Source: Mesodorylaimus sp. YZB2_4 | Lineage: Eukaryota > Nematoda > Enoplea > Dorylaimida > Dorylaimidae | Assembly (NCBI GenBank): GCA_030248295.1 | Contig: JASANH010001497.1 | Span: 1-64,000, forward strand | DNA: 64,000 nucleotides | Reading direction: 5' to 3' | Shown here: positions 35,997 through 62,280 of the stretch, in pieces | Layout of the letters: every line of letters begins with the position of its first letter | How positions within the stretch are numbered: position 1 is the stretch's first letter | The notes under the pieces: model-generated | Database searches by the model: none | What the model was told of the DNA's origin: nothing | What the model saw: only the letters and a program-made list of their open reading frames with translations | Position numbers and translations under genes: made by a program

Positions 35997-37525
35997 ATGA
36001 CTATAATTGACAAGAAAAATTTTTTATCATTCAAGTTGAGCCGTAAACAGTATTTGATAGGTGGAGGAACGAGCGTGGGCATATTTGGTCCGACTGGTAG
36101 GAGCCTTAAATTTTAGAAAGCTTTTGAAATAAAAAATTTATATTTTTTGAGGTTCTGGCAAAACTTCGTTGCTATGTTGGCTATTAGTGGATTCGGCCAG
36201 ATATTTTGAAAACAAATTTTCGAAAATATATTTCTTTTATTCATTCCATCAAACTTTATACGATTATTTGAAAAAGAATTTGGGGGAAAAGATTATATTT
36301 TATCGAGGATTCTCGGACCGTCAATTTTTCGAGGGTTACATCGAACCATTTTCGTGCGTCGTATCTGACGACCTGGACGACCAAGCTTACGCATCGGCTT
36401 TAATGAACGATTTTGTCAAAGGCGGTGTGCATCATAGCAACACGAATTAAATTTTGATAAGTCAATCGATTTATAACAAGTCCAAATTTGGAAGTTCGAT
36501 TCTGAAAAATCTCAAAGTAAGCACCCCCCACGCCTTTCAAATCCTACTGTAGAACGGGCACACTCGACGCGTTCAGCGGGAATTTGAATTTTTCCAAAAA
36601 GTTCTGCTACCTTCTAAACATGTGTGTTGTTTCGTTTCAGGCTTTCGTATTCACTCGTTTGGCTCGCGATATTCATTCTTTGCATACATTTTCGTATCAA
36701 TCGAATTTTCCCAAAAGTTTTCTCTTGGAAGCTTACACGAGAGCGGTCGAGCGAGCCAGCGTGGACGAGTCAATGGAGGAGGCAAACCCAAAAATTGGAC
36801 ATCTTTTTCTCAATTATTCGCCCAGATTAGCTCCCTTTCTCGTGGTCAATGCTAATGTGATTAAGCCGCAATTTGAACGACAACAATCGGTCGATATTAG
36901 TGATAAGAAGGAAGAGGAGAATTACGTTCTTCGGCGGCAAAGAATTATTTCCGCATTGACTGTAGTTTATCCGCCTCCTGGAACCCTCAACGACTTTACT
37001 AATAATATGGCTAAAGACGATGTCAGCAATGCCGCCGATAACAAGGCCGGCTCCGCAGTTGGAAAATTGGGACTGAAAACATTTTATCTTTTGAGTCAAC
37101 GAGATTTAAAGATGCTCACAAAATCGCCGTTGCCGATCACTTCTGGCGCTGCCAATATCGACAAGGTCAAACGGCGATACGAGGACGAGGCTGAATCAAT
37201 GGATCCCCGCATTGGTACCGGCCCAGTAAAAAAGCGAAAGCTGGTGATGGAAAGACGAGATTCGACTAGCCCCGATCCTCCTCCTAAGCTCTATCCCGTT
37301 TCTCATCGAGCAACCGTCAATGGTAATGGTATTGGTCAGGCGAAAAATGATGCTCATCAAGAGCTTATGAATTCAACCATTCCTTCCATGATTTCCCTGC
37401 CAGCCGCTGTAAGAATTCGCATGTTAGAATTGGCCAAAATTTTTCGCAAACTCAAAATTCGACTGCATCCAGAGATCGGCATTTTATCGTTTCCTCCTCT
37501 GCGCCCTCATTCTCCGGGGAAATGA
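35997..37525 (+). pseudogene. Polinton-2 packaging ATPase, three exons, C-terminal extension
   Basis: Exon 1 (35997-36096) begins MTIIDKKNF and ends inside the Walker A loop (GIFGPTG). Exon 2 (36152-36516) supplies SGKTS, a Walker B block SCVVSDDLDD and the ISQSIYNKSKFG segment. Exon 3 (from 36641) begins AFVFTRLARDIHSL, the family FK.pRD region, then FLLEAYTRAVERA and IGHLFLNYSP. Introns are 55 and 124 bp with GTAGG and GTAAGC donors. An in-frame TAA at 36448-36450 breaks exon 2. Exon 3 runs about 220 residues beyond the usual end, with a basic Pro-rich tail (KRKLVMERRDSTSPDPPPK) of unknown role. Confidence 0.85.
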
Positions 37526-37728
37526 TTATGGGAAGTACCCCGATCGTCGATGTTTTACTGTATTTTAGCGTCGATTCGAGAAGCCACGCGTTCAGACCGC
37601 GAGAGTTGTATAATTTGTGCACATTTTTCGTGAAATCCAGTCTCGATCATAGCCCCGCTTTTCACCCATCAAAAAGGCCTAGCGTGCTTTTAAGGCAGAT
37701 GCAAAAGTCGCTTTTGAATAAACTTTAG
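37522..37728 (+). CDS. Small hypothetical protein overlapping the ATPase stop
   Basis: 68 codons starting MIMGSTPIVDVLLYFSVDS. Its ATG overlaps the ATPase stop codon (ATGA arrangement). No family is recognised. It may be a separate gene or a last segment of the ATPase reached by frameshift or splicing. Confidence 0.35.
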   Translation: MIMGSTPIVDVLLYFSVDSRSHAFRPRELYNLCTFFVKSSLDHSPAFHPSKRPSVLLRQMQKSLLNKL

Positions 37729-38118
37729 TCTGTTACGCACTGGCCACAAAATTTCAGAATATGCAGCACAGTCTTAGGTGACGAGAAAAGAACTGATGGT
37801 GAGACGTGTGAGCATACTGTAACATATAGGCATGATACAGTGCGGCCTGTTTTCGTTATTTATGTTGCTAGAATGTTGACTTGTGAACGTGATGAATGGC
37901 GAGCATATTCGTACGCGTCAACCTCGCCCTGTAAACGTGTTGATCGATGAGGATGCGCGATTCAATGTTCAATGCGGTTTATTTCAATCAATTTAAATAA
38001 TTATTTCTTTAACATACGCACTTATGATGATGACTTATGAAAAATACGGTTTTTTGTAAGAACGAATTGCGCATTAGACATATGAGCAAACATCTTTTAA
38101 AGGCAGCGGCAATAAATG
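37729..38118. other. Non-coding spacer
   Basis: Nothing supported. Confidence 0.35.
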
Positions 38119-38440
38119 TCAATCATTCTTTGCTTTGTCTTGTTCGCTATCCTGGGGCTTGGGCTGTTTCGCTTCGTCGTTTTGATCGCAGTGGCGCCAT
38201 TTGGGCGAGCCGCATTGAACGCATATGCTCTCTTCGTCTCCCCAAGGCTGAAAAAAGGCATGAAAATATTTTTGAAGATTTGAATGCACTTTGTGTATGG
38301 ATTTTTTTAAGCTTAGTTGCTTTGGCTTGGCTTTGAGCGGGAACAAAGGCTCGACACGGAAAGTCGAAATCGGGCTCTTGAGTTTCGGGCCAGTCGAACG
38401 GTGACTGTGGTGTCGGGGGCGAGTCTTTTCGATCGGCCAT
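38119..38440 (-). CDS. Small protein with a CxxC..C zinc-binding-like tail, two frames or spliced
   Basis: Starts MADRKDSPPTPQSPFDWPE at 38440. A second frame ends ESICVQCGSPKWRHCDQND...KAKND at 38119. A TTTTTTCAG acceptor at about 38270 precedes the Cys-containing part, so a small intron may link the two; alternatively there is a frameshift. The C..C...W..C spacing suggests a zinc knuckle. No family is recognised. Confidence 0.4.
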
Positions 38441-38540
38441 TTTTTTCTGTTTGTTTGTTAGCTGCGAGTCTGCTCACAGTATACTCATAAGGTAACAGTA
38501 ACATTGAAAAATACGCATCCAAGTAAAATTTAACGCACAT

Positions 38541-38869
38541 TTGCGTTGTCGGACATACAATTCTGACAAAACCAAGTTTTTTAGAGTTTTTTACTTTTTT
38601 GGCCCATCGTCGATGAATTTGAGCTTACACACAACGCCGAATACACAAAAGGTGAATAGCAAGTATATAGTGCAGTACAGTACAATGCACATTAATATGT
38701 TTTACATACAAATAAGAAACAATAATTTTAAATACCTTTTTTTAGTCATCACCCTTCCTACCTACTCCCAGCTATGAAGTTGTGGGCCATTTTATAAACT
38801 GAAACCGAATTGCAAGAGTGAGCCTGGGTCGGAGGACATTGACGCAAAATTTTTAAGCGCAGGACATTG
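38541..38869. other. Non-coding spacer
   Basis: AT-rich; no gene supported. Confidence 0.35.
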
Positions 38870-40405
38870 CTAAGCGGAAGTGAAAGATTGGGGGGAAGAT
38901 GGCGCTGAGGCCAGACTCGTGGGAATGGAGGAGGAGGAGAAGGAGGGAGAGGGGAGCAGCACGGAGGTCGTGGACGGCATCGAGGCCGGATTTATGGGGG
39001 TGACAGAGTACGAGGAAGACGGCGCAGAGGCCGGATTCGTGGGAGCGGATGAGCAAGCAGGCTCATTGTGCATACCCTGAAATAGGCGCTGCCTAAGGTT
39101 TGCAAAAAGAAAAAGCTTCCTCGGCCTGCGCATTTTTAGCTTAGCTCGACGATGGTCTGAACTACCAGAAAAACGAGGCAGTTCTGCAGGGCTATCTTCA
39201 TCTTCTTCTTGCTCGTTTTGAATTATTATTTGCGTTTTATCTTGTCTTTGAGTACTAAGCTCGTAAATGAAGGTGTGTTGGGAAAATAAAGCGCGCTCCT
39301 CTTGTATTAGAAATGGAAGCAGGCAGCCTGGATTCAAATCTTTTGACCCCGAATCGTCAAAAAATTCTATCCCCGTAAACCAATAACACGCATTTTTGAC
39401 ATCTTGCGTCGAGAACCCGTGAGGAGCGAAATTACATCCATCAAAAAATTTGTTTTTCAATTCATCTAAATTAAATGTCATAAACACAAACGGATCCTCT
39501 GGTTTGGGGTTAAAAAGTGAATCAGTCAAGGCCTTGCATGCGTCCACAGTCGGCTGAAGGTCGTAGAGCGGAATTGCATTGAAATTTTCCCTCTTTACCA
39601 TGTCCCAGGATGAAGATGTGAAGAAAAAACCGAAACTTGTGTAGTGTACCAACAGCTTGGCTAGAAGCCTGCCAAACATTAAAGCCCCAGATCCAACAAA
39701 AACTAGACACCGCTTGCTCGATGCTCCTCGATCGAAAAAAGTCACAAAGGCACTAAAAAACGACCTTACTGATGCGGGTCCTGCTGCTCCGGAATCGAGA
39801 AAAAGCTTATTTAGCATGCTTAACGATTGCGAGGCATTGTAACAGTTCCAAAAATCGATATTAAATTTCTCAGAAAAATTTGCATTTTTAAGTAAATTTA
39901 AAAAACCAAATCGTTTCATACTATTTAACGATTTCTTGACGGCATTTTCGAGGACTTCCTTTTTTTCAAAAAAACGAAGGCTAGCAAAAAAAGCGATTAC
40001 CGGAAGAAAGTGAGCTTTGAAGGCGTGGGATTTCAGTTGATCGACGCTGGTGACTAATAAGTATTTTTGCCACTCCGCCACTGCTTTTTGCTCGTTGAGC
40101 AATTCGATTCGATCCATTTCGCTGTTCGATCCTGGCTGGGATCGTTGACCACATCCGACACTTGCAAACGGTTGGGATACTTCTTTTGCACTTCTTGAGC
40201 ATTCACGCTCGTTGCAATGCCCCTGGCTCTCATCTATAAACTGCTTGCGGAACGAAGTAAATCCTAAAAAGGAGGATGCTTGTTGAATGATGAGAATATT
40301 TTTTTCTATTTTATAAGGTGTTACAGTATACAGACCCGACTTGACCCTGTAGATTGCGTGGTGTACTGGCAACTGCGCATCATACCTGTCAGGAATGTTC
40401 TCCAT
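38870..40405 (-). CDS. Large protein with degenerate superfamily-3 helicase-like motifs
   Basis: Open for 511 codons. I favour the ATG at 40117 (MDRIELLNEQKAVAEW; 416 residues), because the 5' part contains intron-like GTATG...AG signals. Visible in order: an aromatic helical region; KRCLVFVGSGALMFGRLLAKL, which has Walker A spacing GxxxxGRL where GxxxxGK(S/T) is expected; IPLYDLQ at the Walker B position; and PFVFMTFNLDE at the motif C position (hydrophobics, T-x-N). The C-terminus is Ser/Pro-rich and disordered. The pattern resembles parvovirus/bidnavirus-type SF3 ATPases, but the key Lys is Arg and the Walker B acidic pair is reduced, so it may be catalytically dead or a false match. Function unknown. 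Confidence 0.55.
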   Translation of the reverse strand: MENIPDRYDAQLPVHHAIYRVKSGLYTVTPYKIEKNILIIQQASSFLGFTSFRKQFIDESQGHCNERECSRSAKEVSQPFASVGCGQRSQPGSNSEMDRIELLNEQKAVAEWQKYLLVTSVDQLKSHAFKAHFLPVIAFFASLRFFEKKEVLENAVKKSLNSMKRFGFLNLLKNANFSEKFNIDFWNCYNASQSLSMLNKLFLDSGAAGPASVRSFFSAFVTFFDRGASSKRCLVFVGSGALMFGRLLAKLLVHYTSFGFFFTSSSWDMVKRENFNAIPLYDLQPTVDACKALTDSLFNPKPEDPFVFMTFNLDELKNKFFDGCNFAPHGFSTQDVKNACYWFTGIEFFDDSGSKDLNPGCLLPFLIQEERALFSQHTFIYELSTQRQDKTQIIIQNEQEEDEDSPAELPRFSGSSDHRRAKLKMRRPRKLFLFANLRQRLFQGMHNEPACSSAPTNPASAPSSSYSVTPINPASMPSTTSVLLPSPSFSSSSIPTSLASAPSSPQSFTSA

Positions 40406-41222
40406 CTGACGGCATCACAGTCATTTCCGAATAGACGGTCGACGATGTGCAGGGCTGATGGACGGTCACGGTTTTGGCATACGCTCCAATCGGTAGTGTC
40501 ACATTCTTCCATTCTCGACGTTCCCATACCCCGTCCTGCTTCCTTACAAAAATGTGCCTAAAAAAGCGGGAAATCAAAATAGCATACACTGTGTGGCATC
40601 TGATTTTTATGATTATATGTATGCCGAAGTATGCTTACTCGTTCATCCTGGGAGTTGCGTCCACTTGCCCAGTTGCCGAATCGGCTTCGGTAGAGGACAT
40701 AAACGCCTCCAAAGCGCTCAAGGATGGCTTCGATGTTTTTTTGACTGGTTCCTGTTCTCTGATTTCCAGATCCCGCTCCTCTTCCTCCTCCTCCTCCATC
40801 TCTTCCTCGTCCATCTGTTCCGACATCTTGTCCACTTTGCCCACTTTCTCGTCTTTCGCTTCCTTCAGTCTCTTCTGAGCTCCAGATGCAGCAATGGAGG
40901 AAGAATCGGCGAGGGAGACAAAGATGGCCTTTTCGATTTCAGCTGAGGGTTGCTCGACATGTTTTTGGTCAATTGGGCGGACTGTTGTTCCGGGCTGATA
41001 AATGCGGGATCGAGTAATGGTTCGTTCGGATGTAATTATAGTGATTTCAGCAGTGGGTTCGATTAATCTTACCTCCAACACAGCGATCAGATACTCTTTT
41101 TTTTGCTTGCTAGCCGCAGTCGGACGTAAAGATGTTGTTAGTTCGCGGTGGAAAGATGCCAAAGTCCAGCTTTGTTCAATTTTTTCTCCAATCAGTGGAT
41201 AGAGGGATGATGCTAGGTTTTT
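40389..41222 (-). CDS. Two-exon acidic-linker protein, unknown
   Basis: The upstream exon (about 41222-40639) encodes a structured part (KKEYLIAVLEVRLIEPTAE, ITIITSERTITRSRIYQPG), a charged helix and a Glu-rich run (MDEEEMEEEEEEERD). A GTAAGC donor at 40638 and TTTTTTAG acceptor at 40558 define an 81-bp intron. The second exon (40557-40389) continues in phase with IFVRKQDGVWERREWKNVTL and AYAKTVTVHQPC, ending in TGA. No initiating ATG is seen near 41222, where the frame is closed upstream, so a first exon is probably missing. It lies head-on with the helicase-like gene on the same strand, spacing near zero. No family is recognised. Confidence 0.5.
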
Positions 41223-41862
41223 TCCTCCTTAAAATCGTCTAGCTTTTGACGTTGATTCATGGGCGTGGGGCGTTGCGAAGACACAATGATTAAGTGCTCG
41301 TAAGTTAGACAAAGATGGCCTCGGATAAGTGACTCGATGTCCTCGTCTGCGCCACAGCTGGACATACGGCGTTGAAATGGGATAGGGAGTACAGTATGTA
41401 GCCAAAAAAGCGACGGATGGTTGGGTCAATGGGGTATACACGCAGCAGCAGTACTCCTACGACTACAGACAATAAGGCTGAGTATAAAAATTAAAACTAA
41501 GGCAATAATCGCAATAGTTAGAGACGATAGAGGAAACAGGGGGGGGGTGGGAATGGAAGCAATGGATCGCATCGATTTTAAGCACTACAAACTAGCTGTA
41601 GAAAACAGCTTCTTATATAGACCGAGTCGGATCAAAGACGCAATCAGTTATTTTTTAAAATAAACGAGTTCTAAACCTACAAAGGATAATTTCTAGTTTT
41701 TTCCATTGTCTCGAGAAAACTATATGCCATCTGTCGTTTGCTGGTCACGTGGAAACCTCAACTTCTTGCATGTGTGTAATATACGCTTTTCCTTTTTTTG
41801 AAAAAAATACCCATGTTCTCGAGTATCAATTCACGTGCATGATCTGTCGCGCGACGCAAGTT
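41223..41862. other. Spacer with short unassigned frames
   Basis: Short frames at 41421-41663 (+) and 41441-41229 (-) match nothing known. The minus-strand one could hold the missing first exon of the neighbouring gene. A G-run lies near 41540. Confidence 0.3.
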
Positions 41863-42733: not shown

Positions 42734-42844
42734 CGGCAGCAGAACTGTAGGCCCCGTCAGACACTCGATGGCCGAGCCGCTTTCGACTCATGAAAATATT
42801 CATCCTCGACCCCGTCTGCAGCATTTTCATCGATATTCAATCGC

Positions 42845-45995: not shown

Positions 45996-46009
45996 ATAGT
46001 GTCATTTTT

Positions 46010-46285: not shown

Positions 46286-46289
46286 AAAA

Positions 46290-48960
46290 TCATATCGAGC
46301 AGCTAATTCTTCTGTCCCCGTGGAGCGTGAGAGCGACCGGATATTCGGCTACAATAAAAAAAGCATTCAGGTGAAAGAGTTTCGAGGAGAAACCTAGCAT
46401 CTTTCTGGCGCGTATGCTTACCTATAGCCACCATCGCCAATGGTTCTTTAGCCCTTTTTTGAAATGTGGCGCGTAGCATAAGCGAGCCTTCTTCGTTCGA
46501 TGATAAATACCTGGGAAAACGAAACATTTTTTCACATCATTTCAATGGTGTTAGAAAATGGGACATTACTGATAGCACATCAGAAAATAACATTTTCTAT
46601 GATAACATATCAAAAATGGCGTATTCGTGATAACATAACATTAGGAAGAGCATATCAATGATGACGCATTTAGTGATAGCATACCAGAAAAGACGTATCA
46701 GAGATAACATATCGGGCGAGGCATATCAGTGATAGCGCATCACAAAATGACATATCAGCGATAACAAATCAGAAATATCATATCAGTTGTGGCGTATCAG
46801 TGATAGCATATCAGAAAATGTTGCATCAGTAATGAAATATCAGAAGACACACCAGTGATGACGCATTAGAAAATGCCACATCCGTTGATGACGTATTAGA
46901 AAAAAATGGTTAATCCTTCGACTGAGTTAAAGCGAGAAAAATTGGAAAAATAAATAGATAAAATCAATCGACTTACGAGGCGCGCATGCCGCTCGAATGA
47001 TCCCGCGACAAATCAATGACGAGGAAGAATAAGCTATTGGTATAGTCTCGGAGCGAAATGCTGAACGTTGATAAAAGATTCAGTTCGCGCATTAGTAGAA
47101 AATAAGCCGAATCCGCTTTGACCACATCGAGAACATCGTCGGTCGATACGCGATACGGAATACTGTGGTTTGGAGTCTGATTCAAGAAAACCTGAAAAAA
47201 AACATTATTGATTTTGCTGCAAATGCGACAAAAAGCGTAAAGAGAGCAAAAAAAGAAACAAAACGCACCTGAAGCTCGCTGAGATAATGCGGTTTGAAGT
47301 GAAATGGATTCATTTTCATTTCTTCCGCAACGATAGCCCGCTGCGGGATCAAAAACAGAGTCAGCCTATTGGGGCAACGACCTATCGAAAAAAGCCAATA
47401 TCAATCGGTAAAAAAAGGTGGCCCTTCCAAAAAATACAAAAAGAGCTCACCTCTGGAAATTTCTGCATTATCTGCAGCCGTATCATCCTTGAGTTTAAGA
47501 ATTATTCTGGTGTCCAACCTCGGGAAGTGATAATGCAAGCCGGTCGTGCTCAGCAAATGATGTTGTCGAGCGAGGGCTTGCGGACGATGCCGATAACGAG
47601 ACACCATCATCCTGGAACCCGTAAAAAGAGCAATTATGCGAAGCCACGATGAACAAAATGGGGCAACTCATTGGAAAATATCCCACAAAGGACCGACAGA
47701 AGTTGCTTGGCTTATTTAAACAGTGGTAAGGAGAAGTACAACCTACTTTGCTTCCACGACTTGAAACTGATAGTTATCAACCGAGCTATCAGCTATTAGG
47801 ATAAAATTGCTGGAATTGAGCGCTAGCTGATATCTGGGAGAAATGAGAGATGGTATCATATGATTTGCCGTGCAGACACAAGAAAACGAACCTGAACGAA
47901 GTGGAAGGTGGAAAGAATCTGGGCGCCAGCGAAGTCTCGTCGATCAAACGTCCCAACAATGTGACTACATTCGACGAGGCGAACATGCTCGCGCGTTGAC
48001 GTAAATTAGAACTTACACCCAAGCCGTCCCAGTTGTCGATAGTGTTGGCGTCAATCTCGACGTCGGGAAGAAATAAATTAGTGGACAACAGAAAACGCTT
48101 CGTCGAATCGCTGAAATGACGCATCTTATTTTGCTATTATTTTTTAAAACCGACGACGAAATTGGCTTTTTTCTCGCACCTACCTCAAGTTACAGACGGC
48201 TTGAAAGAAACTTTGATAATGATGATTGTTGGATGTTGAAGCTAGAAAAGGGAGGGACGTAAAATGATTTTTTCGCTTTTACAAAATAAGCTCGAGGATG
48301 CTAAGCTCACCCGTTAGCAGCTGCTCGTTTACGTAAAGGGCGCACCATTTAATCATGATGTTTAGCAAAAACGGAATAGTGCTAACCTAAAAATAAAAAT
48401 TGGCGTAGAATTTGGGGGAAAATTATTAAAATCTCCTCACCTTATCAGTAGGTAAAAGCTTGCTTCCGTCGCTTCGAACAATTTGCACTTTAAACATGAA
48501 AAAACTGTCAAACAGACTAACTGATAAATTTGAACTGCCGGCGGGTTCAAAATAGAAATCAATCGTCCCGGAACCCTAAAAACGCCAATTTTCTTGGCAC
48601 ATTAGATTAGCGAACAAATTTAAATTGAATCATACTTTGACGGGAAATACCGAGGACGAAGACCTCGATTCGAAAGACTGAGATTCGACATCCTGCTCCT
48701 TGGGTGGTGCGCTGTAGAAAAAGTGAACAGTCATTCCCCCCCTAAAAAAGCAGACCACTTAATAAAAGCTTACCTGTAGATTAGCTGATTCGAACTAGCC
48801 ACAGTTCCAGTATAATTAGTAGCCAAAGTTGCAAATTCCTCAGCTTCTTTAGCAGCCACTCGAGCTTGAACGCCTTGACCGCTTGATTTCGCACTAGCAT
48901 TTTTGACGCTTTGTTTTTTCAGTCTTCTTTTCAATGTCGTCTTCAACAGCTAGCTACTCA
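46290..48960 (-). CDS. Polinton-2 major capsid protein, 12 exons, open
   Basis: Exons (high to low): about 48960-48774, 48741-48636, 48575-48441, 48386-48311, 48241-48184, 48110-47892, 47833-47747, 47611-47451, 47381-47269, 47191-46977, 46510-46422, 46348-46290. With these borders the phase is kept and no stop occurs in exons 2-12. MCP signatures in order: GSGTIDFYFEP with FKVQIVRSDGSKLLPTDK; STIPFLLNIMIKWCALYVNE; NHHYQSFFQAVCNL; NVVTLLGRLIDE; MKMNPFHFKPHYL (NPF.F); LRDYTNSLFFLVIDLS; EEGSLMLRATFQ; and a final AEYPVAL strand. The start is uncertain: exon 1 has no in-frame ATG. It forms the double-jelly-roll capsid. Introns are mostly 50-135 bp; one of about 466 bp holds a minisatellite. Confidence 0.85.
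46555..46905. repeat. Degenerate minisatellite inside an MCP intron
   Basis: About ten imperfect units of 30-38 bp built on CATATCAGTGATAGCATATCAG and AAAATG. It lies wholly within the intron between MCP exons 10 and 11 and explains that intron's unusual length. Confidence 0.8.
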
Positions 48961-49712
48961 TGTTCGTCGTATTCTTCTTCTTCTTCTTCCCCCACTCGAT
49001 CTCGTTCCTCTTTGTCGAGTACAGTCAAACGATGCCTGCCACTGCTAATTCTCGCAGTTTGTCGCTCCTCTTCGTCTTCAGACTCGGAATCAGACTCGTA
49101 ATCACCTTCGTAATCTAGCGGATAATCTTTCTGCCCCTTTGTTTCGCGCTTTTGCACCAGTTTCCGCGTTTGCCGTCCACTAGTAGATGCAAGAGGCTTA
49201 CGATCTTGATGATGATGATAATTAGTATATTCGTCCTTGTTGGATAATAAATCGGCACAAAACTTGTCAATCGGAAGACGCCTTCTAATCGCTGCAGAAG
49301 GGGTAGAAGTAGTGGAATCACCAACAACAACAACGGGTCTTTTCTTTCCACGCCTGCTGATCGGCCGTTGATGATGTCGTTGCTGATATTGAGAATCTAA
49401 ACCACAACTGGAAGCTTGATCACTTCGACGACGATTATAAGTATTTTCTATTCGGTCGCGTTGAGGATACTGAATAGCTAATCGATTCGGTAGTGGTCTA
49501 GGCTTACGTTGGGGGTCGAGATGGGGAGAGACGGCTCTTCTATCTTGCAACGCGCACGTCGAAGTCTCTACCGTCGAGGCTTGCTTTTTCACAGGCTGAG
49601 AACGTTTCCTTTTAGTCGGCGCCTTCTTGTTAGACGTAGCAGCTAATGGTTGCAAAGCGTCGTCAAGAACTTCTACCAAACCAGACTTGAAAGTTTCAAT
49701 AATTGCTGCCAT
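48954..49712 (-). CDS. Basic, disordered protein with acidic tail, upstream of MCP
   Basis: 252 codons from an ATG at 49712 (MAAIIETFKSGLVEVLDDAL). A short amphipathic start is followed by Lys/Arg-rich low-complexity sequence (KKAPTKRKRSQPVKKQ, SRRGKKRPVVVVG), a Gln/His/Arg-rich middle and a strongly acidic C-terminus (ESDSESEDEEE and EEEEEEYDEHE). It sits directly after the virion protein and before the MCP on the same strand, which is where Polinton-1 has its Lys-rich protein. A DNA-condensing core or scaffold role is plausible but inferred from composition and position only. The end overlaps MCP exon 1 by a few bases. Confidence 0.6.
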   Translation of the reverse strand: MAAIIETFKSGLVEVLDDALQPLAATSNKKAPTKRKRSQPVKKQASTVETSTCALQDRRAVSPHLDPQRKPRPLPNRLAIQYPQRDRIENTYNRRRSDQASSCGLDSQYQQRHHQRPISRRGKKRPVVVVGDSTTSTPSAAIRRRLPIDKFCADLLSNKDEYTNYHHHQDRKPLASTSGRQTRKLVQKRETKGQKDYPLDYEGDYESDSESEDEEERQTARISSGRHRLTVLDKEERDRVGEEEEEEYDEHE

Positions 49713-51529: not shown

Positions 51530-52760
51530 TGGCCAGCGGAATCTTGAAGCTTATAAGTGTGAGGAATGGTTGGCAGGCGCTCAACTACTGTCTAAAGTTC
51601 GGGCCCGTAAACTTGTCCTTGAGAGCTTTTTGTGCCTAATTTTCCAGCAAATTGATCTTGCTGCCATTTAACAACATCGTGGAGTTGGAAAGAGAAATTT
51701 TTAGGGTATCCTAATTTTCCAGATTTGGCTTGTCGCTTCTGGAATCGGAACTGAGCGACTAAACGACCTTTGCATTCCGGTTTGGACCACACTTGAGCGG
51801 GAGACCAATTTTGAGGAAGAACTCTACTCGGAGTCTCGTTGATCAATCGCTGAATGTTGGGCAAAAGTTTTCGTATATTGCCCCGCGTATGCGTGCTTAG
51901 ATATCTAAAAAATTTAAGAAAATGAATGAAAAATGCGTCAGCACGCGTCTGGCGGAACACTTACTTGTGAATTAGTCTTTTTGACTGAAGAACCTTGGCC
52001 TCGGCCAGCGGAGCGCCAATGCCTCCGGTCGAGAGAAAATGTAAAATGCCTCTCTTCTGAAGCATGGAATCGAAAGCGCATCTGCAAAACTCCCCTCCTG
52101 AAATACGTGGAAAAAAATGAAAACGTTCTTTAACGAAAAATAATAAAACGAGCATGAACTGTGAATCAAAAATCGATATTCTTTGTCTCACCTTTGTCTG
52201 ACAAAATAATCTTTACACGTTTTCGTTTATCTCGCGCAATTTCGTCTAGGATCGATTCCACAGCATTAGCAGCGGCTTCGACAGTTTTCGAAGCAAGTGG
52301 TCGGAGAAATGTGAACGTTGAGAGGGTGCACGAGCATACCAACATATAAGGCGAGCTTTGAGCGCGACTTAAATCATTCATAAAAGCGAGATCAAGCTGT
52401 AAAATCTAAAAAAATCAAGTTGAGCGAAATATACAAGAAACTATGAACAAAAAAACCGCTCCACTAACCTCAGCCACTTTGTAGGCAACAACTGGACGAC
52501 GGGGAAATTTCCAATCGGGCAATCTGAACCGATTGTAGGCCGCGCTATCTCGTAACACGCGATCCACTGTCCGTTTCTTCACATGGCCAAAACGTTATTT
52601 CACGGCCTCGTAAAATGTCCTTTTCGCGCCTAAAGGCCCCGGAACAGGCCTATCACCATCGTCGAAATATAGCGCAGTGTAAAGATGACGAATCTCGTCG
52701 TCTTTGGCTCGACGATTTTCCAGCCACTTTTCCTTTTTAAAAAAATGACATAATTTCAAC
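51530..52760 (-). pseudogene. Polinton-2 rve integrase, four exons
   Basis: Exon 1 (about 52760-52469) has the N-domain: RHLYTALYFDDGDRPVPGPL, FYEAVK, then DRVLRDSAAYNRFRLPDWKF. Exon 2 (52405-52192) has ILQLDLAFMNDLSR (first Asp), YMLVCSCTLSTFTFLRPLAS and ILSDKG (second Asp at the end). Exon 3 (52097-51965) starts GEF and has GAPLAEAKVLQSKRL (Glu). Exon 4 (51904-51530) has LPNIQRLINETPSRVLPQNW and the SH3-like tail ending TYKLQDSAGQ at a GTAAGT donor. Lesions: TAA at 52595-52597 and TAG at 51592-51594. All three catalytic acids remain. No chromodomain was found, unlike in Polinton-1. Introns are 60-95 bp. Confidence 0.83.
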
Positions 52761-52934: not shown

Positions 52935-55900
52935 ATGGCGGATGCGATTCAAAATCCAGCTAACAATCGTGGCGACGGTGGGCGAGAGAATGATGAAGAA
53001 GCATTCGATCCCGACAACCCGGGATTTTGGGGCCTCGAGGCGATTCCCTATGTTGTGCAAACTAGATCTGACAGCTTTCAGTCGACTTGGCAAATGGCTC
53101 GAGACATCGGCATGCCGCCCGGAGATCAAATTATGTGCCCAGAACCAGAAGAATTTGGACTAGGCTGGTCGTCCCAGGACCAGGAAATTTATAACGCGTT
53201 AGTGGAGAATTACCACTCGAGGAGAACTCATACGACCGATTTAAAAATTATGAAAATTTACACCATACGTCTTCCGCTCTCCGATTATTCTCGAAAGAGT
53301 TAAGCATTATTTTCGAGCGGTAAGTTGTGTTCAAGGCCAAAAGCTTCAACACAAAACCTAAATATTCTGCCCTAACTTTTTTTAGATATTTCTCGAACAA
53401 AATTCTGCATTCAAGCTGAATTTTGCTTTTTCATTTTTACTGAGCAGATTGGAAAATGAGGCCGAAAAATCTGATGACGCTTGGCTCAAAAAGAACCTTT
53501 ATCGGAAATTCGAAATTTCCTTCGTTTATTACGACCGTGATCAGCCGCCTTTAATTTTCGATCAATCGTCTATGGATTTGGCGATTGATGCATTGAACGA
53601 AACTGATCTCGTGGCGCAATGTAGCCTTCAGAGAGAAGACACAAAAGTGAGCCATTTATTTCGCTCGATCAAAATCAGCTGAAAGTTTCAAACATGTCCT
53701 TTTTTTAGTGGCAATTTTTGAGCTTTTTGTCTTATGTCGTTTTTGTCAACTTCGTGGGCGACTTGCCCATTGGTTCTCCAAATTTTCGCACCCAATACCT
53801 ACCACCCTATATCGCCAACAGCAAGCACATTCACGCATTTCTAAAGAATAATAAACGCAACGCGAAGGAAAACGGGAAAAACATTTGTTTTTTTCGTTGT
53901 CTCGCCACCCATAGAGTTCAAAAATTTAGAGAAATCGAACGGAAAACGAAAAATCTTTATCACACTTACCAGGACTATTTGGTGAAAAACAAATTCACGA
54001 CGAAGCGCACAACAATCAGTAAATTCCCAGGAATGATGTTGGCCGATTTACACTGAGCCGAAGCGTGTTTCCAAATTTCGATCCAAGTCTGGACTTTCGA
54101 CGGGGATGGTTCGAACGATGATTGTGTCCGGGTTAAAGTGATCAGAAGATCAGTGGACGCTTATCCGAACTGCAAAACTCTTCACTTGATGCAATGGTCA
54201 AACCATTTTTTCCTAATTTCTAATCATCGGCGACTAGCCAGAAGGTAAGCCAACCCCCCAAAACAGCCCCTTTTCGAGCCGCCATCTTGCGCATAGTTGT
54301 TGCAACTGCCTTAAAAGTCTACTGTGACCGCTTCATTTAATTTTAATCCCAACCTCACTTTTACCGCAACCGTGTGCACACGGCAAAAAAAGTAACAATG
54401 ACGTTTGGAGTCAGATTGGTAGTATTACTGTAACTGCTGTTTTAGTCTCAATTTCACCATATTTAAGTGTTCTTGGCGCAAGACGTGGCGCATTCTTGGC
54501 GAGACGCCAATGTCGCCCGTAATTTTGTGTAATTTTCATTTGTATGTAATTTTATTGTAGCAAACTTTTTTTTCCAATTTTTAGTTTTATGTGTACATCG
54601 TGCAACTCAGTTTTCAAGTCTCATCGCGATTTGAATCGTCATTTATTCGGTCTGAAAAATGGAGAGCCATGCAAAAAGGGTGAAACTCGAGAAATATTTA
54701 ACAGAGGATGCGTTGGGCCGCGTGTTACTTTATTTCATAAAATTTCGGCAAACTGCGGGATCAATATTCCGCCTTCTCTCCAATTTTTTCCTTTTCGTTA
54801 CGTATACGACATTGAAACAATTACACCATCTCGGCAGTCAAATTTCGACGACAATTTTCCTGCTCCCGATGCCGATCGATACGTTCTAAGAGATTTAAAT
54901 AGCGAAAATAATGACGTTGGAAACGATTTGAAATTATGCCGCAAGTATAGGCCGCCTGCTTGGACGTCTGATCACGAGTCAAAAGCCGATTATCAACCAA
55001 GAAATGTGGGGGATGAGTTGAGTAAATTTTCGTAATTAAAATTTACTGCTTTTTCATCGAATCGTTCGAGCTACAAAAAGATCAGGGTTCGAACATGTTT
55101 TCCACCAAAATCCGAAAACGATGTGCGACTAGTTCAAACGAAGAGTGGGCGAAATTTCATCGAAAATGAGGATAAAACAATTTTTAAAATGACAAATTCA
55201 GAAATGAGGGAGAACATTATTTGCGCCTTAACACTGGTGTCCAGAGAGACCAAAGCCGATGTGAAACCGATGGATTTTTGGCTCCTGCTTTGCGTTGAAA
55301 ATTGAGAGACCCTAGAGTACGAAATTGTCAAAACTTGTTATTTTTTTAACGATTTTTCCACCCCTGGATCACCGATGACCATTTTAGACTATGCTGACGC
55401 GTACGCCCGAGTAGAAGCAGCCTCGCCTTCGGGTGACGACGATGACTCGTTCGGTTAAACTATGACAGCCTGGATGACGCCCATTTTGCATAAGTCGAAA
55501 TCCGATTTGATTGGAATTTTGGGCTTCGAATGCAGGTACGAGTGTCAACGCTCTGTATTTTTATACGAACTGTCTCCTATTGCGATTTGTGTCCAAGCAA
55601 ATTTTAAAAACTTTAACGAGGTGCTTTTTTTCTGCAATGAAGATGAAGAGGATTGCGAACGAGGGGCCGAAGACATCATCGCGCGCTTCGTCGATTTCGT
55701 TTTTGCGGCTTCGGCTGAAGCGAAAAGACTAATGTCGGCCAGACTAAAACCTTATTTGGATCAAATGCGTTCAAAAATGAATTTTTATAAAACTCTTTAC
55801 AAGCCGTACGAAAGGGTGCTAAAAGCTGTTCGGTGCAATAATAATGGTGCGAAGTTAAGCAAACGGGCGGCCGAATCGGAAGCGCAAGTTCGACTATTGG

Positions 55901-57359
55901 CCAATGGCTTTAGTTTAGTGGAGATCGAGAATATGCGATTGGCCGGGAAAACCTTCGCGTTGATTTCAAAATTATGGTTAGAACTCGATCAGTATTTGAG
56001 CCAAATGCCGTGTTTGGGATACGCATCGAGATCGTTCGATATTCAGGTCATGAAACGATTTCTACTGCCAGCCTTGTGTCGTCGATGCGGAGAATTGGGC
56101 AAAGATTCTTCTTGTATCAGCGCCATTACTAAGCATCAGCGCTATTCAGCAATTTATACGCCGAATCTGGTCTTTTTCGATGCCTTCAATTACACGTCCC
56201 CCATGCCCCTGAAGGTGAGTGCTTTTTGTTGGGGAAAAGGAAATAGGCTTTTAGCGGGTAGGAAATACGTCGTGTTTTTTTAGCTGGTGATAAATACGTA
56301 GGGTAGCAACAACATGAACGGTAGATGATAGTTGCAATGGGCAGGCTATCGGCGCCACAATTCAAAAATTTTTATTGTTTAGACTTTTCTGAAAACTTGG
56401 AACGTGAGCGACGAAGACGGGAAACTGGACAGCATATTTCCATACGATTATATTACTATACCGAGATTGAAAGAAACTCAACTGCCGCCGATGAAATGCT
56501 CCAATAATTGGCTGCGGAACGAGATCATGACTCCCGAAAAGTATGAAAAAGTGGAAAATTTTTGGGCTCATAATAATGTGCGGGATTTGAAAATGCTGTT
56601 GAGACTTTACAACGAGGTGAGGATAGCGACTGCAATGCACGACCAGTTTTTTTTGTTATGTGAATTTTTTTCAGGCTGATGTTACATCATTAATGTTGGC
56701 GTTGAAAAATTTGTACGACTACTAGACGATGGAAAATGGGATCGATCCTTTCAAAGGCTTTTTATCTCTCAGCGGTAACTTTTTATGTGTTGTTTTTTCC
56801 ATCAATCGCCTTTAAAAGGTTCATTTTGTATCCAGGATTAAGTTGGGAAAACTTTATGAGGTTCCTCGCAAAGACGCGGCCATTTAGCATGATTCAAACT
56901 TATAACCGAAAACATCGAGATTTATATGATCTTCTAAGGAAGAACCTTGTAGCTGGGTAAGATGCGTAGGCTGATACGAGACGGGCAGAACCGAGTCAAA
57001 CTTTTGCTCCTCGTTTTTTTTCTTGTTTTAGACCGAGCATCGTTTTAAATCGTTATCAGAGGCCGTATTCATGAACGCTCGCTGTAATTACGGTGAGGTG
57101 ACCAGAGAGTTTAGTGTGAGGTGACTATAAATACAGTGAACTTAAATGCAAAAAACCCAGTGAGCTCACCATAGTTTCTCGTGAGGTGACTCGAGCAAGG
57201 CCTAAAATTTTACTCCCATTCATGAAAGTCACCGCAATAAAATAAGGTCACTAGAATTCAAGGTGACTGCAACGAGCTTCAACAGCGCGCAAACCGTGGT
57301 CTAATGCCCTCAAACCCATAAGATTTATTTTGGAAAATCCTTTCTTATTTTGGAAAATG

Positions 57360-57983
57360 GGTAATTTCACTGATGAGGAAGAAAATGAAATCGCTGATTT
57401 TTTTTTGCGTCATAAAGATATCTTTAAATCGGCTAGTCGGTCAGCAAATTCGAACCAAAAGCGAAATCGATTGTATCAGCGTCTGCTCAGTCAATTAAAC
57501 GCGAGTAGCCCTGGCGATCCTCGTACGATAGATCAATTAACCTCAAAAATTCAATATTTGCAAGGAACGACGAAACAGAAAGTGTCCGAAATCAAGAAGT
57601 CGCAAAACAAGACTGGGAGCGGTAAGTCAAAAATATCAAAACTGTCCAACGCTGAAGAAAAAATTGCGGCTGCATTTGGAGAAACGCCAGGATACGCTGG
57701 CATACTAGGTGGAGTGGAAAGTGGTGGGGAGAACCCATACGAAGACAAGGGTATCGATAAAGACTCCATGGATGACCAGGATGACCAGGATCTCGCGTAT
57801 TTGGATACGTCGACCCACATCCACAGTGGCAGTGTCTCGCCAGCGTTGCAGTCCGAGGGCAACAACTTGCCAGTGGCCAGTTTGAAAACGAAGAGATTGG
57901 CATCAGGGCTCAGTGATGACGAGGACCGGGAGGACAGGCCACTGTGTCCAGCAAGACATTCTTCAGTGCTCGGCGTCGATTGA
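57360..57983 (+). CDS. Harbinger-3 Myb/SANT-like partner protein
   Basis: 208 codons from MGNFTDEEENEIADFFLRHK, a Myb/SANT-like three-helix start (KRNRLYQRLLSQLNAS, IDQLTSKIQYLQGTT), followed by a Lys-rich linker and an acidic, Ser-rich tail (KDSMDDQDDQDLAY). The final codons overlap the truncated nuclease on the other strand, so the natural C-terminus has probably been replaced by the deletion junction near 57960. Confidence 0.6.
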   Translation, partial: GNFTDEEENEIADFFLRHKDIFKSASRSANSNQKRNRLYQRLLSQLNASSPGDPRTIDQLTSKIQYLQGTTKQKVSEIKKSQNKTGSGKSKISKLSNAEEKIAAAFGETPGYAGILGGVESGGENPYEDKGIDKDSMDDQDDQDLAYLDTSTHIHSGSVSPALQSEGNNLPVASLKTKRLASGLSDDEDREDRPLCPARHSSVLGVD

Positions 57984-58629
57984 CATTTTCGTAGCTATTC
58001 CAAAAGGCACTTTGTCGCAAAATGAAAGAGTCGTGTGTTGATCCAGGCCACTTTGCCACGATATTCGTGAATTTTAGTCGATAATCGCACACAACTTGAA
58101 CATTGATCGAGTAAAAATTCTTCCTGTTCAAATATTGCTCAGGATGTTCGAATGGTGGCAAAACTGCAATATGCGTACCGTCAATACATCCAAGCACTCC
58201 AGGAAATTTCGCAATATTGTAGAACTGGCGTACGCATTCTTGTGCATGGTCCCCTCCAGGAATTTTGACATAACCATTCAATCGTCGACATAACGCTGTT
58301 GACACCGAAGTGAGGACACGAGAAACGCTTGGTTGAGACAGTCTCAAGCTATCACCGTCCAACAACTGATATGGCCCGCCACTGCCATAAAAGCGGAGAG
58401 CCGCTAAAACTTGATGTTGAACACTTAAGGAATGTCGACGATGTGTGTTTCTTCTGAAATCGGCTCGCAAAAGCGTGCACAGATCATTTACACCATCTTT
58501 AGTGAAGCAGTATCGTTGTAAAAAGTCCTTGTCGTCATATTTGTTGAATGCATCGAAGCGAGGTCGAAATATACTTGGGCGTCGTTGCTCAATTAGCCCC
58601 AAATCTCCGTCGAGGTCCAGAAAATCCAT
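57910..58629 (-). pseudogene. Harbinger-3 DDE nuclease, C-terminally truncated
   Basis: Starts MDFLDLDGDLGLIEQRRP. It shows LSVQHQVLAALRFYGSGG and SLRLSQPSVSRVLTSV (helix-turn-helix), then FPGVLGCIDGTHIAVLPP (first Asp) and AKWPGSTHDSFILR. The frame runs into unrelated codons after LKNVLLD, exactly where the second Asp block (LGDSgYp) is expected; the Glu block is also gone. An internal deletion has fused the gene tail to the partner gene. It cannot mobilise itself. Confidence 0.82.
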
Positions 58630-59097
58630 TTTCGCTTGTTCGCAGCTTATTTAATCACAACTTAAAAGAAACAGTTCGACGATAAAATTTTTGAGGTGGT
58701 CTAGACCACCTCAGGATTTTTTCTTGACCTTATAGAGTTGGCTTTATTTTCTTACGACTGAAGTTTCATGAATGCCGTTTTTAAGTCAAGCTTGATTTTT
58801 CTGAGCAGTGACATCAACTTGGTCACCTTAAAAGTTTCATGAATGACAAGGTTTTGTCACCTCACTGTAAGATGGTCACCTCATCAGAAAGCTCACGAGG
58901 AAACGCTTCATGAATACGGCCTCAGGAGGTGGATGTGACGCGAGTGCCTTCCGGGTCCTTGGTCAAAAACATTTTCGGGTTCGACGTCAATTCTTTGTAA
59001 GCAAACAGTCTGTTTTTTGTAGAGGGAGGGGAGAATATGAAAAAAGGAGTGTGCGGCCTAATTTCATGCTTTCTTTTTTTTAGATACCCTTCAGCCT

Positions 59098-59529
59098 TCA
59101 TGTTGGACTTGCCTCACGGTCTGGGCGTACGTTATCAAGCAGTCGAGTCGTCATGGCCGCAGCAGCACCAACTGCAAAACGATCCAAATCCAGTGGCTGA
59201 AAACGACAACAGAGCGGGTGACAAAATTGGCGGCGAGTCCACGATCGAGGATACTGCATCTGACATGTTGGACGTGCTCATCGACTGCCTTGATGCTGCT
59301 GAGGAAAGGTCTTCAACCTCCATGTCGGACTCTCCTCGCAGTCCTGGCCCATGTTATCGAGCGGTCGAGTCGCCATCGCCGCAGCAGCTGCAACTGCAAA
59401 ACGATCCAAATCCAGCGGCTGAAAACGACAACGGAGCGGGTGACGAAACTGGCGGCGAGTCCACGATCGAGGATACTGCATCCGACATGTTGGACGCGCT
59501 CATCGACTGCCTGGACGATGCTGAGAAAC
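59098..59529 (+). repeat. In-frame tandem duplication (two units of about 216 bp) inside the polymerase
   Basis: Two adjacent units of about 72 codons with high identity, each containing QNDPNP(V/A)AENDN, GGESTIEDTASDMLD and LIDCLD. They follow polymerase motif A directly. Related polymerases have no such acidic segment there, so it is an insertion that later duplicated. The frame stays open through both units. Confidence 0.8.
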
Positions 59530-62280
59530 AGTGGGGCGAGGACGAGGAGGAGAAGGACGAGGAGAATGTTCAATACCCGTTGGAATCGACCATTTTGAAA
59601 AGTTGCCAAACTGAACTGTATTAGAGACGCGTGGTCGAATGGTTGAGCTTCTCCTGCCACCTTCATCGCACGCTCGGCACCTGTCACAATCACCAGCCCA
59701 TTTCGCGTTATTATTGCGGTAAGTGAAATTGCTTAGTTTTATTTTGTGTTGCTAATCTAACAATCGCTTATGGTATCATTTTTTCAGGTATGGAGCTGCG
59801 GCTGGGCCCATTGTCCATCCTAGTGGATGCTTATTGCCCCAATTGCAAGCTAATTGAACAATTTCTCGGGGTAAGGCAATTTTAACTATTGTTTCCTTCC
59901 ATTATAAAACGAAAACCCTTTTTTATTTTGTTTCAGTGCTTTTGGCACGCTCACGCCCTCGATCAGTGTCGAGATCCGGCTCATGAACGTCGATACCACA
60001 CCCTCTCGGAATCTGATCAAATTCAATGGGCGGAACGACAAGAACGGACCGCTCGAATCGATGAACTTCTGCAAAAGTATTCGCTCTCCAGCAATCACAA
60101 GGTCGTCATAATCTACGAGTGCGAATTCCTCCTTCAACAGGGCATGATTCGCGATTCCAAGGCCAATGATATTGATTTTTCCCGAATTCCGCGCGAACCG
60201 GATTTGATTGCATTTTGTCGAAAGGAATTCCCCTATTATAATATTCCAAATAAACTGACTGGACAGCAACTGTTGAACTTGGTCTTGGCTGGCTGATTTA
60301 CGGGTTTTGTGATTTGCGATTTGGAAATTGAGGGACAAGAGGAACGCGCTCATTTTCAACGTTTCCCTCCCAATTTTGTGAACCGTGAAATAGGTAAAGT
60401 GCGGATAATCGATTCGTGTGAATATTTTTTAAATATTTCTATCCTTTTTATTATAAGCAGGAACAACTTGAAGGGAGTCATGAAGGATTACGCTGAAAAA
60501 CATAATCTATTAAAACGACCGCAAAGATTACTCGTTAGCACTTTGGGCGCCAAACAAGTCACGATTCTGACCACCTATTTGAAGCATTTGGTGGAAGAAT
60601 TTGGCGTTTCGGTAAAGAAACTTGCCTCAAGCCATCTATTATCGCTTGAAGCCGATTTATAAGGAGTATTTTATGAATAATCTGAATGCTAGGATTCTCA
60701 GTAAGTTGGGCGCACCTAAGATAGTGGGAAAAGTGGGGATTTTTTAAACCAATTTGCGGTGAGACCAAACGAAACTACAAGTTTTTGAGGTTTTTAAATT
60801 ACCCGCCTTTTTGTGTAAATATCGACCGCGCCTCTACCTGGTGAATGCTCGAAAAAACCAGTTTCCAGTATTGTATCTAGATGCGCATGCTGTCGTTGGA
60901 ATAATGCGGAGAGACGGCGGCAGCAAAAAAAATAAAATTCTATATGCTTTTGTTTTCAGCTCAAGAACAAGGCCAATCGGCGAGAAGCAACGCCAAGAAA
61001 TTGGAAAGTGAGTACCTTTTATAATATGAGATTCACTCGCCCCTTATACCCCCGCCCCGACTGTAGCTCAGGAATCGGAAATAGGGGCGGGCACTCAAAA
61101 AAGGAGCCAAGCTTGACTAGTTAAAACACTTAATTCGCACGCTGTCTATTTCAAAAATGTGAACCTTTTTCAGGCAACTGTATTTACGGCTATACTTGCA
61201 TCGACCGCAAAAAGCATAGCGAAGTAGTTATCGTGTCGTGCGAGGAGGCGCTAAAACTGGCCGCCCAGCCGCGTTTTCGACACGCAACTGCGATCGTGCC
61301 GAACAAGTGCTATCAAGTAACGATGGCTAAACGTGCATCGCGCATGAATGTGCCTATCCACTTGGCCGTCGCTGTCCTGAACTTGGCGAGTAAGTGAACA
61401 TTGTTTTCTTTTTTCAGATTCCCTTTAGTATCACTTCCCGTGCTTTTTTTCGCAGAAATCGAGCTAAACAAGTTCATGTGGAATTTTCTATTCCAATTTT
61501 TTGGGACAAGGTCGACCTTAGCATTATCGATACAGGTAATACAATACGCTCATTGAACTAAAAGCCCGAAAAACATAAACGGCATTTTAGACTCTGCCTT
61601 TTTCTCTGGTTGTCACGAGAATCTGGATGATCACGTCGCACCCAAGGATCGAGCGGAATATGAAAAGGCGGAGGACGAGATTCTGGCTTTGACGTCTGAA
61701 CATAAATTGTAAGTGCATTTTTTAAATGCGCGGTAGAATTATTGTCCGCACAGTTTAGTCTAGCCTAGCCTAGTCGAGGAAACAATATTTGAGTGCACTG
61801 TTCTCCTTCCAGCACGCCCATGAGATGGAAGCCTGAATTGCTGGACGGAGAATCGATCGTGGCGCCAGCCAGCAAACTCTATCACGTAATCAGGAAAAAT
61901 AAGAAAGGAGTCATCTGGAAGGCCAAAGGGGTTCAAAAGATCAATCAACTACGCAAGGACAATTATCTGAAAGCCGTTCTGTGCAACGAAGAGACAATCA
62001 CCGAAAACAGAGGCTTCAAGCTTTGCAAGAAAACCTCGCGAGTGTTCTCGACTGAAATTGTGAAAGTTGGGGTCACTGGGTTTTACGTGAAACGAGTGGT
62101 TTCGCCCTCCGGCGTACATACAACCGCCCTCGATTTGTAAGTGCACATTTTTTTCTTCCCGCCAAAACACGATTTTTGATTAAAAAATGAGACCCAAGTC
62201 GTTTGATATGGTTCATTTTTCTTGTGTACAATGGCCTTCACGCTTCCTCTGTCGCGCCTGACTTGTTGGGATGGAGGAGG

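What the first reader, a model, noticed from the sequence alone, without database searches (positions are those of the whole stretch)
35997..62140. Polinton/adintovirus-like element whose core genes are all split by small introns
ATPase (3 exons), MCP (12 exons), integrase (4 exons) and polymerase B (a dozen or more exons) have canonical GT-AG introns of mostly 50-135 bp, some cutting through catalytic motifs (Walker A, ExoIII, motif A, motif C). Neighbouring Polinton-1 has the same genes without introns. Packaging size and virion biology make dense introns surprising. They imply long residence as a nuclear element, or a lineage that relies on host splicing.
Basis: partly seen in the sequence, partly recalled or inferred. 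Interest (0 to 1): 0.9.

Follow-up and report, generated by a model that had tools for sequence, protein, structure and literature searches.

The report
Decayed Polinton with dense introns
A virus-like giant transposon in a eukaryotic genome has its polymerase and packaging genes (and probably its capsid and integrase genes) cut up by more than two dozen ordinary-looking small introns, although such elements are usually described as intron-free, and this copy is now dead.

Summary
The introns look real. A profile of 57 related polymerase proteins, run against all open frames of the window, hits ten pieces between 55.4 and 62.1 kb, one strand, in profile order. The extra DNA between blocks equals the marked GT-AG introns (plus one inserted transposon) within 4 nt in six of nine gaps. 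A search over all canonical splice-site pairs returns the marked introns in five of six chosen gaps (Fisher P 2e-4; site definition loosened after a strict run gave two of six). I mark 28 introns, at Walker A, ExoIII and motifs A, B, C among others. ATPase is confirmed (E 4e-6); integrase and capsid are only probable. Neighbouring Polinton-1 and locus L001 are intron-free.

Best reading: a Polinton lineage that gained spliceosomal introns while functional and used host splicing, then decayed here. Intact vertebrate Mavericks are reported intron-free (PMC8097293). Host, other copies and transcripts could not be examined (genome search busy in 15 of 15 tries), and two papers on nematode elements were not held, so novelty is provisional.

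The parts
35997..37525 (+). packaging ATPase gene, 3 exons; the third (long frame, no known domain) assigned by eye
   Evidence: profile of L001 ATPase + Polinton-1 ATPase pieces hits 36151-36447, E 4e-6, positions 19-108; 36451-36549 follows at 111-130 (E about 20 alone)
36097..36151 (+). intron in Walker A of ATPase (55 nt; acceptor is the unusual GAG)
   Evidence: homology begins one residue behind it
36517..36640 (+). ATPase intron 2 (124 nt)
   Evidence: read by eye
36448..36450 (+). in-frame TAA inside an ATPase exon
46286..48760 (-). probable major capsid protein gene, 11 exons marked (5' limit approximate); no in-frame stop before the end seen in the ten 3' exons
   Evidence: homology weak
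46349..46421 (-). MCP intron (73 nt)
46511..46976 (-). MCP intron (466 nt, holds tandem repeats)
47192..47268 (-). MCP intron (77 nt)
47382..47450 (-). MCP intron (69 nt)
47612..47746 (-). MCP intron (135 nt)
47834..47891 (-). MCP intron (58 nt)
48111..48183 (-). MCP intron (73 nt)
48242..48310 (-). MCP intron (69 nt)
48387..48440 (-). MCP intron (54 nt)
48576..48635 (-). MCP intron (60 nt)
48957..49712 (-). open 252-aa frame between MCP and integrase, no Pfam match
51595..52760 (-). probable retroviral-type integrase gene, 4 exons (5' limit approximate)
   Evidence: exon 2: rve E 0.12; exons 2 and 4 in order in a profile, E 3.9 and 0.46
51905..51964 (-). integrase intron 3 (60 nt)
52098..52191 (-). 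integrase intron 2 (94 nt), at the second catalytic D motif (motif recalled)
52406..52468 (-). integrase intron 1 (63 nt)
52595..52597 (-). in-frame TAA in integrase exon 1 (collinearity by eye only)
53386..62140 (+). [quoted passage not shown]
   Evidence: ordered homology blocks
53647..53708 (+). PolB intron (62 nt)
54054..54056 (+). in-frame TGA in a PolB exon
56215..56382 (+). PolB intron (168 nt)
56617..56674 (+). PolB intron at ExoIII (58 nt)
56723..56725 (+). in-frame TAG in a PolB exon
56775..56835 (+). PolB intron (61 nt)
56957..57031 (+). PolB intron (75 nt)
57059..58923 (.). Harbinger-type DNA transposon (17-nt inverted match at its ends, CAG on both sides; the outermost base at each end may belong to the duplication) inserted in a PolB exon
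   Evidence: Myb/SANT and DDE_Tnp_4 domains
58997..59083 (+). PolB intron in motif A (87 nt)
59719..59787 (+). PolB intron (69 nt)
59871..59936 (+). PolB intron (66 nt)
60294..60296 (+). in-frame TGA in a PolB exon
60701..60959 (+). PolB intron (259 nt; one of two solutions for its gap)
61008..61173 (+). PolB intron in motif B (166 nt)
61390..61455 (+). PolB intron (66 nt; its gap had no solution)
61536..61590 (+). PolB intron in motif C (55 nt; its gap had no solution)
61709..61812 (+). PolB intron (104 nt; length not matched by the profile gap)

Best explanation
This is the wreck of a Polinton (Maverick, adintovirus-like) whose genes carried real spliceosomal introns while they still worked. 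Shown here: polymerase and ATPase pieces are homologous to Polinton proteins, and the DNA between polymerase blocks has intron length, position and GT-AG ends. Inferred: the lineage lived in host nuclei, was transcribed there and spliced by the host. Because a Polinton copies itself as DNA with its own polymerase, introns that arise in it are copied along and are not purged as they would be through an RNA intermediate; so they pile up during long nuclear residence. Later this copy lost selection: nonsense codons and probable frameshifts accumulated, a Harbinger-type transposon landed in a polymerase exon, and the terminal repeats were lost or lie outside.
For: Ten PolB pieces in profile order on one strand in a six-frame search of the whole window, with L001 polymerase supporting the N-terminal part. 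Excess DNA equals intron sums within 4 nt in 6 of 9 gaps. Search over all canonical pairs returns the marked introns in 5 of 6 chosen gaps, Fisher P 2.4e-4, frame required in four of them. ATPase homology starts one residue behind the Walker A intron. 21 of 27 donors GTRRG and 21 of 27 acceptors YYYYAG (sites chosen by eye, so biased). Lesions. Relatives without introns at DNA level: L001 and Polinton-1 PolB.
Against: No transcript, no second copy, host unknown. MCP and integrase identity is statistically weak. Three of nine PolB gaps do not fit the intron sums; one of six fails, the strict version gave 2 of 6, and the looser site definition was set knowing the sites. One acceptor is GAG. In-frame stops seem to outnumber frameshifts, which I would not expect of plain neutral decay (recalled expectation, not tested) and did not explain. 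ATPase is about 9 kb away from the rest.
Confidence: 0.72

Rival explanations
1. The genes were co-opted by the host at one locus and gained introns as ordinary host genes over a long time, then decayed; the element never moved with its introns.
For: No terminal repeats found; the capsid-like gene shows no premature in-frame stop in its ten 3' exons while PolB and ATPase do.
Against: Polymerase and ATPase, and probably integrase and capsid, all carry introns, more than a domesticated function would usually keep; absence of lesions in the capsid gene is within chance by my own rough arithmetic (no call).
Confidence: 0.13
2. The gaps are random insertions and decay in a fossil Polinton that look like introns to an aligner, as gene models of vertebrate Maverick fossils can show (PMC8097293, passages).
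For: The copy is decayed; the transposon at 57059-58923 is such an insertion; three of nine gaps do not fit.
Against: The 27 marked gaps are 54-466 nt long, 26 of them under 260 nt, with GT and AG ends (a condition of marking); frames are kept in four tested gaps, and the dinucleotide-shuffle control gives Fisher P 2.4e-4, with the reservation stated.
Confidence: 0.05
3. The introns came from a burst of intron-making transposable elements (introners) rather than slow gain.
For: Introners were found in 5% of species searched (PMC9860276, start of abstract in a listing), and candidate introners occur in mirusvirus capsid genes (PMC12768974, passages).
Against: No intron family: among 27 introns the longest mutual match reported is 24 nt, and only matches of 16 and 21 nt lie elsewhere in the window. 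Old introners would have diverged.
Confidence: 0.06
4. The element is alive and the nonsense codons and frameshifts are assembly errors.
For: Few lesions relative to length; capsid-like exons open.
Against: A transposon flanked by a 3-base duplication sits in a polymerase exon; in-frame stops of all three kinds in separate genes; no terminal repeats found.
Confidence: 0.04

Closest known systems
Intact Maverick/Polinton elements of animals (L001; vertebrate Mavericks, PMC8097293)
   Same: Protein-primed PolB with the same ordered blocks; packaging ATPase; probably RVE integrase and capsid protein
   Different: [quoted passage not shown] nine L001 frames open); intact vertebrate elements have terminal repeats and 6-bp duplications, not found here
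Intron-rich mirusviruses (PMC12768974, passages)
   Same: DNA virus genes, virion genes above all, with GT-AG introns peaking near 80 bp; interpreted as nuclear reproduction
   Different: Another virus phylum, of protists; densities in the passages seen reach 0.65 introns per kb, here about 28 in 26 kb
Endogenous giant virus genes with introns (mentioned in PMC12768974 as a sign of decay)
   Same: Viral genes in a nuclear genome with introns and decay
   Different: Different viruses; here introns interrupt each recognised core gene and lie between still recognisable exons
Ginger1 DNA transposons (PMC2836005, passages)
   Same: Gypsy-like integrase gene in a DNA transposon, some with 1-4 introns, nearly all GT-AG
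   Different: Small transposons with a transposase gene; far fewer introns
Polinton-1 of the same window (17.4-23.7 kb)
   Same: Same core genes
   Different: No introns seen; groups with P0001/P0002, while element 2 sits on a long branch without supported neighbour in a one-exon tree

Membership tests
[quoted passage not shown]
Polinton/Maverick | FtsK/A32-type packaging ATPase | tested here: met
   E 4e-6; about 9 kb from the other genes
Polinton/Maverick | retroviral-type integrase | tested here: inconclusive
   rve E 0.12, next family 0.14; profile E 0.46 and 3.9, another locus better; chain test z 2.6 but reversed order scored higher
Polinton/Maverick | double jelly-roll major capsid protein | tested here: inconclusive
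   three exons in order but E 0.9, 12 and 29; P 0.024 and 0.026 for two of 7 exons; chain z 1.8
Polinton/Maverick | adenain-type protease and penton | tested here: inconclusive
   L001 PRO and penton find only chance-level rows in the window, also none convincing in Polinton-1, so the probes may be too distant
[quoted passage not shown]
   no inverted pair at the element's ends; so filed as a Polinton-derived wreck, not as an intact Polinton
Polinton/Maverick | intron-free genes (usual, not defining) | tested here: not met
Spliceosomal introns (U2 type) | GT-AG ends, pyrimidine-rich acceptors, frame-keeping removal | tested here: met
   with the reservation; splicing itself not observed
Introner elements | introns similar to one another | tested here: not met
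Spliced in vivo | spliced transcripts | not testable with these tools
   no RNA data

The most novel reading that the evidence does not exclude
A whole lineage of Polinton-type viruses in this host group depends on host splicing for polymerase, packaging and capsid genes, a counterpart of the intron-rich mirusviruses, with several copies sharing intron positions and some still intact.
Probability: 0.25. Interest if true: 0.82.

Novelty: new variant of a known kind. Interest (0 to 1): 0.56.

Why it matters
One survey of endogenous viruses in protists predicted genes with an intron-blind tool on the ground that such elements lack introns (PMC10120064 methods, passage), and intact vertebrate Mavericks are reported intron-free (PMC8097293). 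An intron-dense lineage would be missed or scored as junk by such methods. It would also show that a DNA-replicating virus-like transposon can stay functional while carrying about one intron per kilobase, and make it testable whether introns mark the loss of a free virus stage.

Tried and rejected
Genome-wide search for other copies: the genome search answered 'busy' in all 15 calls (5, 7, 11, 18, 30, 37, 44, 52, 58, 69, 80, 90, 93, 108, 110); the same request was repeated, no other form. Host identity: only transposon domains among Pfam matches in 1-9900, no Rfam match at gathering score; the T-rich TTTTCAG acceptors recall nematodes, but that is recall, not a test. Pfam on whole frames of the PolB, ATPase and integrase regions: no Polinton family. 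First protein search with one PolB exon: nothing. Viral-contig scans: nothing confirmed. Tests of MCP and integrase exons against Polinton-1 inconclusive: best-frame P below 0.05 for 2 of 7 MCP and 1 of 4 integrase exons, the latter at a wrong place; ordered chains z 1.8 and 2.6, each exceeded by at least one of 60 shuffles, integrase also by its reversed order. CpG decay as the cause of the stops rejected: CpG ratio in two PolB stretches 1.51 and 1.34. The three stops at 55033, 55303, 55456 are not counted as nonsense: they lie in a stretch where relatives have little counterpart. A possible further PolB intron near 54245-54585 was seen but not tested. Folds of two window frames without alignment gave pLDDT 33 and 39, unusable. 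Exon trees: one exon, 47 rows, shown; the second tree was built but its display failed, the third did not run.

Papers: passages by term search in PMC12768974 (12 of 30 places), PMC8097293, PMC10120064, PMC12220804, PMC11071296, PMC11071308, PMC11244446, PMC12721341, PMC2836005, PMC3671162, PMC6431247, PMC12210455, PMC12747079; PMC4028283 searched, no occurrence; PMC9860276 listing only. 10.1093/molbev/msad274 (nematode Polintons, title seen in a reference list) and 10.1126/science.ade0705 (nematode Mavericks, recalled) are not held; whether they describe introns I cannot say. 'Not seen in print' rests on the listings of eight searches, some of them capped, and these 14 papers' passages.
Full report
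What was checked. The finding claims a Polinton-like element at 35997-62140 whose genes are split by small GT-AG introns, next to an intron-free Polinton-1. I tested it piece by piece, without splicing the exons together.

Polinton-1 as control. A 602-aa metagenomic polymerase, P0001 (PF03175, 61% identical to one Polinton-1 piece), aligns to Polinton-1 at 17489-19150 in one frame over 560 columns with one in-frame stop at 18371. A locus found by profile search, L001 (11.8 kb contig filed under an Escarpia laminata endosymbiont MAG, presumably host contamination), carries open frames for PolB, ATPase, integrase, penton, capsid and protease; penton and protease are named from recall. With L001 proteins, Polinton-1 shows ATPase (19748-20385), capsid (20475-21587) and integrase (22517-23654) pieces without intron-like gaps, but broken: neighbouring capsid pieces lie in one frame (in-frame stops), ATPase and integrase pieces change frame.

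Polymerase of the second element. P0001 retrieved 60 further proteins at E below 0.1, from a candidate list that was capped. Most are unnamed; five of the 57 used come from named animals (Patiria, Littorina, Nucella, Porites, Plakobranchus). Whether all of them come from uninterrupted genes I did not check. A profile of the 57 was run against every stop-to-stop frame of 12 aa or more in the window. Fifteen domain rows came back at E up to 10: two in Polinton-1 PolB, eleven rows in ten pieces between 55459 and 62137, one chance match in the Polinton-1 integrase, and one, 53386-53679, whose profile position (84-138, E 7.7) is out of order. The ten pieces run 29-186, 193-271, 292-338, 345-376, 430-459, 459-516, 559-641, 685-756, 785-820, 853-959. 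Single E-values range from 2e-16 to 3.7; order and strand carry the weight. L001 polymerase adds the N-terminal part: 53386-53679 (130-204, E 0.25), 53709-54053 (213-289, E 5e-7), 54550-55032 (372-445, E 3e-5), again in order, with one out-of-order chance hit at 60539. Blastp of nine pieces against the relatives gave each at least one hit at E below 1e-3 in that small set.

Introns. Reading the DNA I marked 27 introns in four genes: 54-466 nt, median 69. Their splice sites are far better than background, but I chose them by eye, so that number is biased. Two further tests were made. First, the excess of genomic over profile length between blocks against the sum of marked introns: 165/168, 122/119, 66/66, 423/425, 117/121, and 1941 against 75 plus the inserted transposon and its duplication (1941-1943); disagreements are 624/156, 36/0, 17/104. 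Second, for six gaps that I chose, a search for any canonical donor-acceptor pair or pairs of the expected length, in frame where no frameshift intervenes, against 3000 dinucleotide shuffles each: solutions in 5 of 6, the only one or one of two being the marked introns, P 0.057, 0.033, 0.009, 0.007, 0.081, and none for the sixth; Fisher P 2.4e-4. A first, stricter definition, with one block end off by one, gave solutions in 2 of 6; I corrected the end and loosened the definition knowing the sites, so the P value is indicative. The intron 53647-53708 was read and returned by this test. Introns fall at ExoIII, motif A, motif B and motif C; the family alignment shows these motifs as conserved, motif names are recalled.

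Other genes. ATPase: a profile of L001 and Polinton-1 pieces hits 36151-36447 at E 4e-6; the match begins at the second residue of the piece, in the middle of Walker A, whose first half ends the preceding exon at 36096; 36451-36549 continues at position 111 across an in-frame TAA (E about 20 alone). Integrase: exon 2 matches rve at E 0.12 with an unrelated family at 0.14; exons 2 and 4 appear in order at E 3.9 and 0.46, behind another locus at 9136-9417 (E 0.06 for the whole piece). Capsid: exon 47185-47400 is the best match outside Polinton-1 (E 0.9), exons at 48282-48386 and 47792-48133 lie in the right order at E 12 and 29, among chance rows; two of seven exons reach P near 0.025 against Polinton-1; the ordered-chain test gives z 1.8 for capsid and 2.6 for integrase, but at least one of 60 shuffles scored higher in both and the reversed integrase order scored higher. 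I therefore call these two genes probable. Their marked introns look as canonical as those of PolB.

The copy is dead. In-frame stops at 54054, 56723 and 60294 lie between collinear PolB blocks; ATPase has 36448, integrase 52595 (for integrase the collinearity is by eye). Two frame changes inside exons near 60.63 and 61.49 kb are probable, by eye. A transposon with inverted ends (17-nt match, 57059-57075 and 58907-58923), flanked by CAG on both sides, with Myb/SANT and DDE_Tnp_4 domains, sits inside a PolB exon between an intron end at 57031 and the block at 58917. No inverted repeats bounding the element were found.

Origin of the introns. No two introns share a reported match longer than 24 nt, and only matches of 16 and 21 nt lie elsewhere in the window, so there is no sign of introners. 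The two window elements are different lineages: Polinton-1 groups with P0001 and P0002 (SH-aLRT 100), element 2 sits on a branch of 2.6 changes per site with no supported neighbour, in a one-exon tree of 47 rows, 107 columns.

Comparison. Intact vertebrate Mavericks are described as intron-free, and large insertions in fossils as detected as introns by the annotation program (PMC8097293); a protist survey used intron-blind gene calling on the ground that endogenous viruses lack introns (PMC10120064). Mirusviruses are a published case of intron-rich DNA viruses with GT-AG introns near 80 bp, enriched in virion genes (PMC12768974). Some Ginger1 transposons, with a related integrase, carry 1-4 introns (PMC2836005). 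In eight searches of the held library, listings and passages only, I saw no intron-rich Polinton, but two papers on nematode elements could not be opened.

Conclusion. The best account is a Polinton lineage that gained spliceosomal introns while alive in host nuclei and relied on host splicing; this copy later decayed. Whether a live lineage exists is open.

Noticed in passing
17369-23654: Polinton-1 is itself broken: in-frame stop at 18371 in PolB, at least two in the capsid frame, frame changes in ATPase and integrase; its integrase ends in a chromodomain (22520-22837, Pfam Chromo E 2.5e-8).
   Followed up: partly
57059-58923: Harbinger-type transposon with matching inverted ends inside the PolB exon; its DDE_Tnp_4 frame matches only the first 67 of 158 profile positions.
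   Followed up: partly
23982-25145 and 33646-34239: Two further DDE_Tnp_4 transposase frames, the first covering the whole profile.
   Followed up: no
38873-40414 (-): 514-aa open frame inside the element without convincing Pfam, PHROGs or PDB relative; fold without alignment unusable.
   Followed up: partly
59089-59528: 218-nt tandem duplication (87% identical) of a Q/E/D-rich stretch in a PolB exon behind motif A.
   Followed up: no
54826-55543: About 700 nt in one frame with three stops where relatives have few residues: a diverged linker, insertion or unrecognised intron.
   Followed up: partly
both window Polintons: In-frame stops seem more frequent than frameshifts, unlike what I would expect of plain neutral decay; not tested.
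   Followed up: no
L001: An intron-free animal-type Polinton is filed in a bacterial endosymbiont MAG (QGON01000029.1), probably host contamination.
   Followed up: no
1-9900: Only transposon domains recognised: DUF5641, hAT dimerisation domain, Integrase_H2C2.
   Followed up: no
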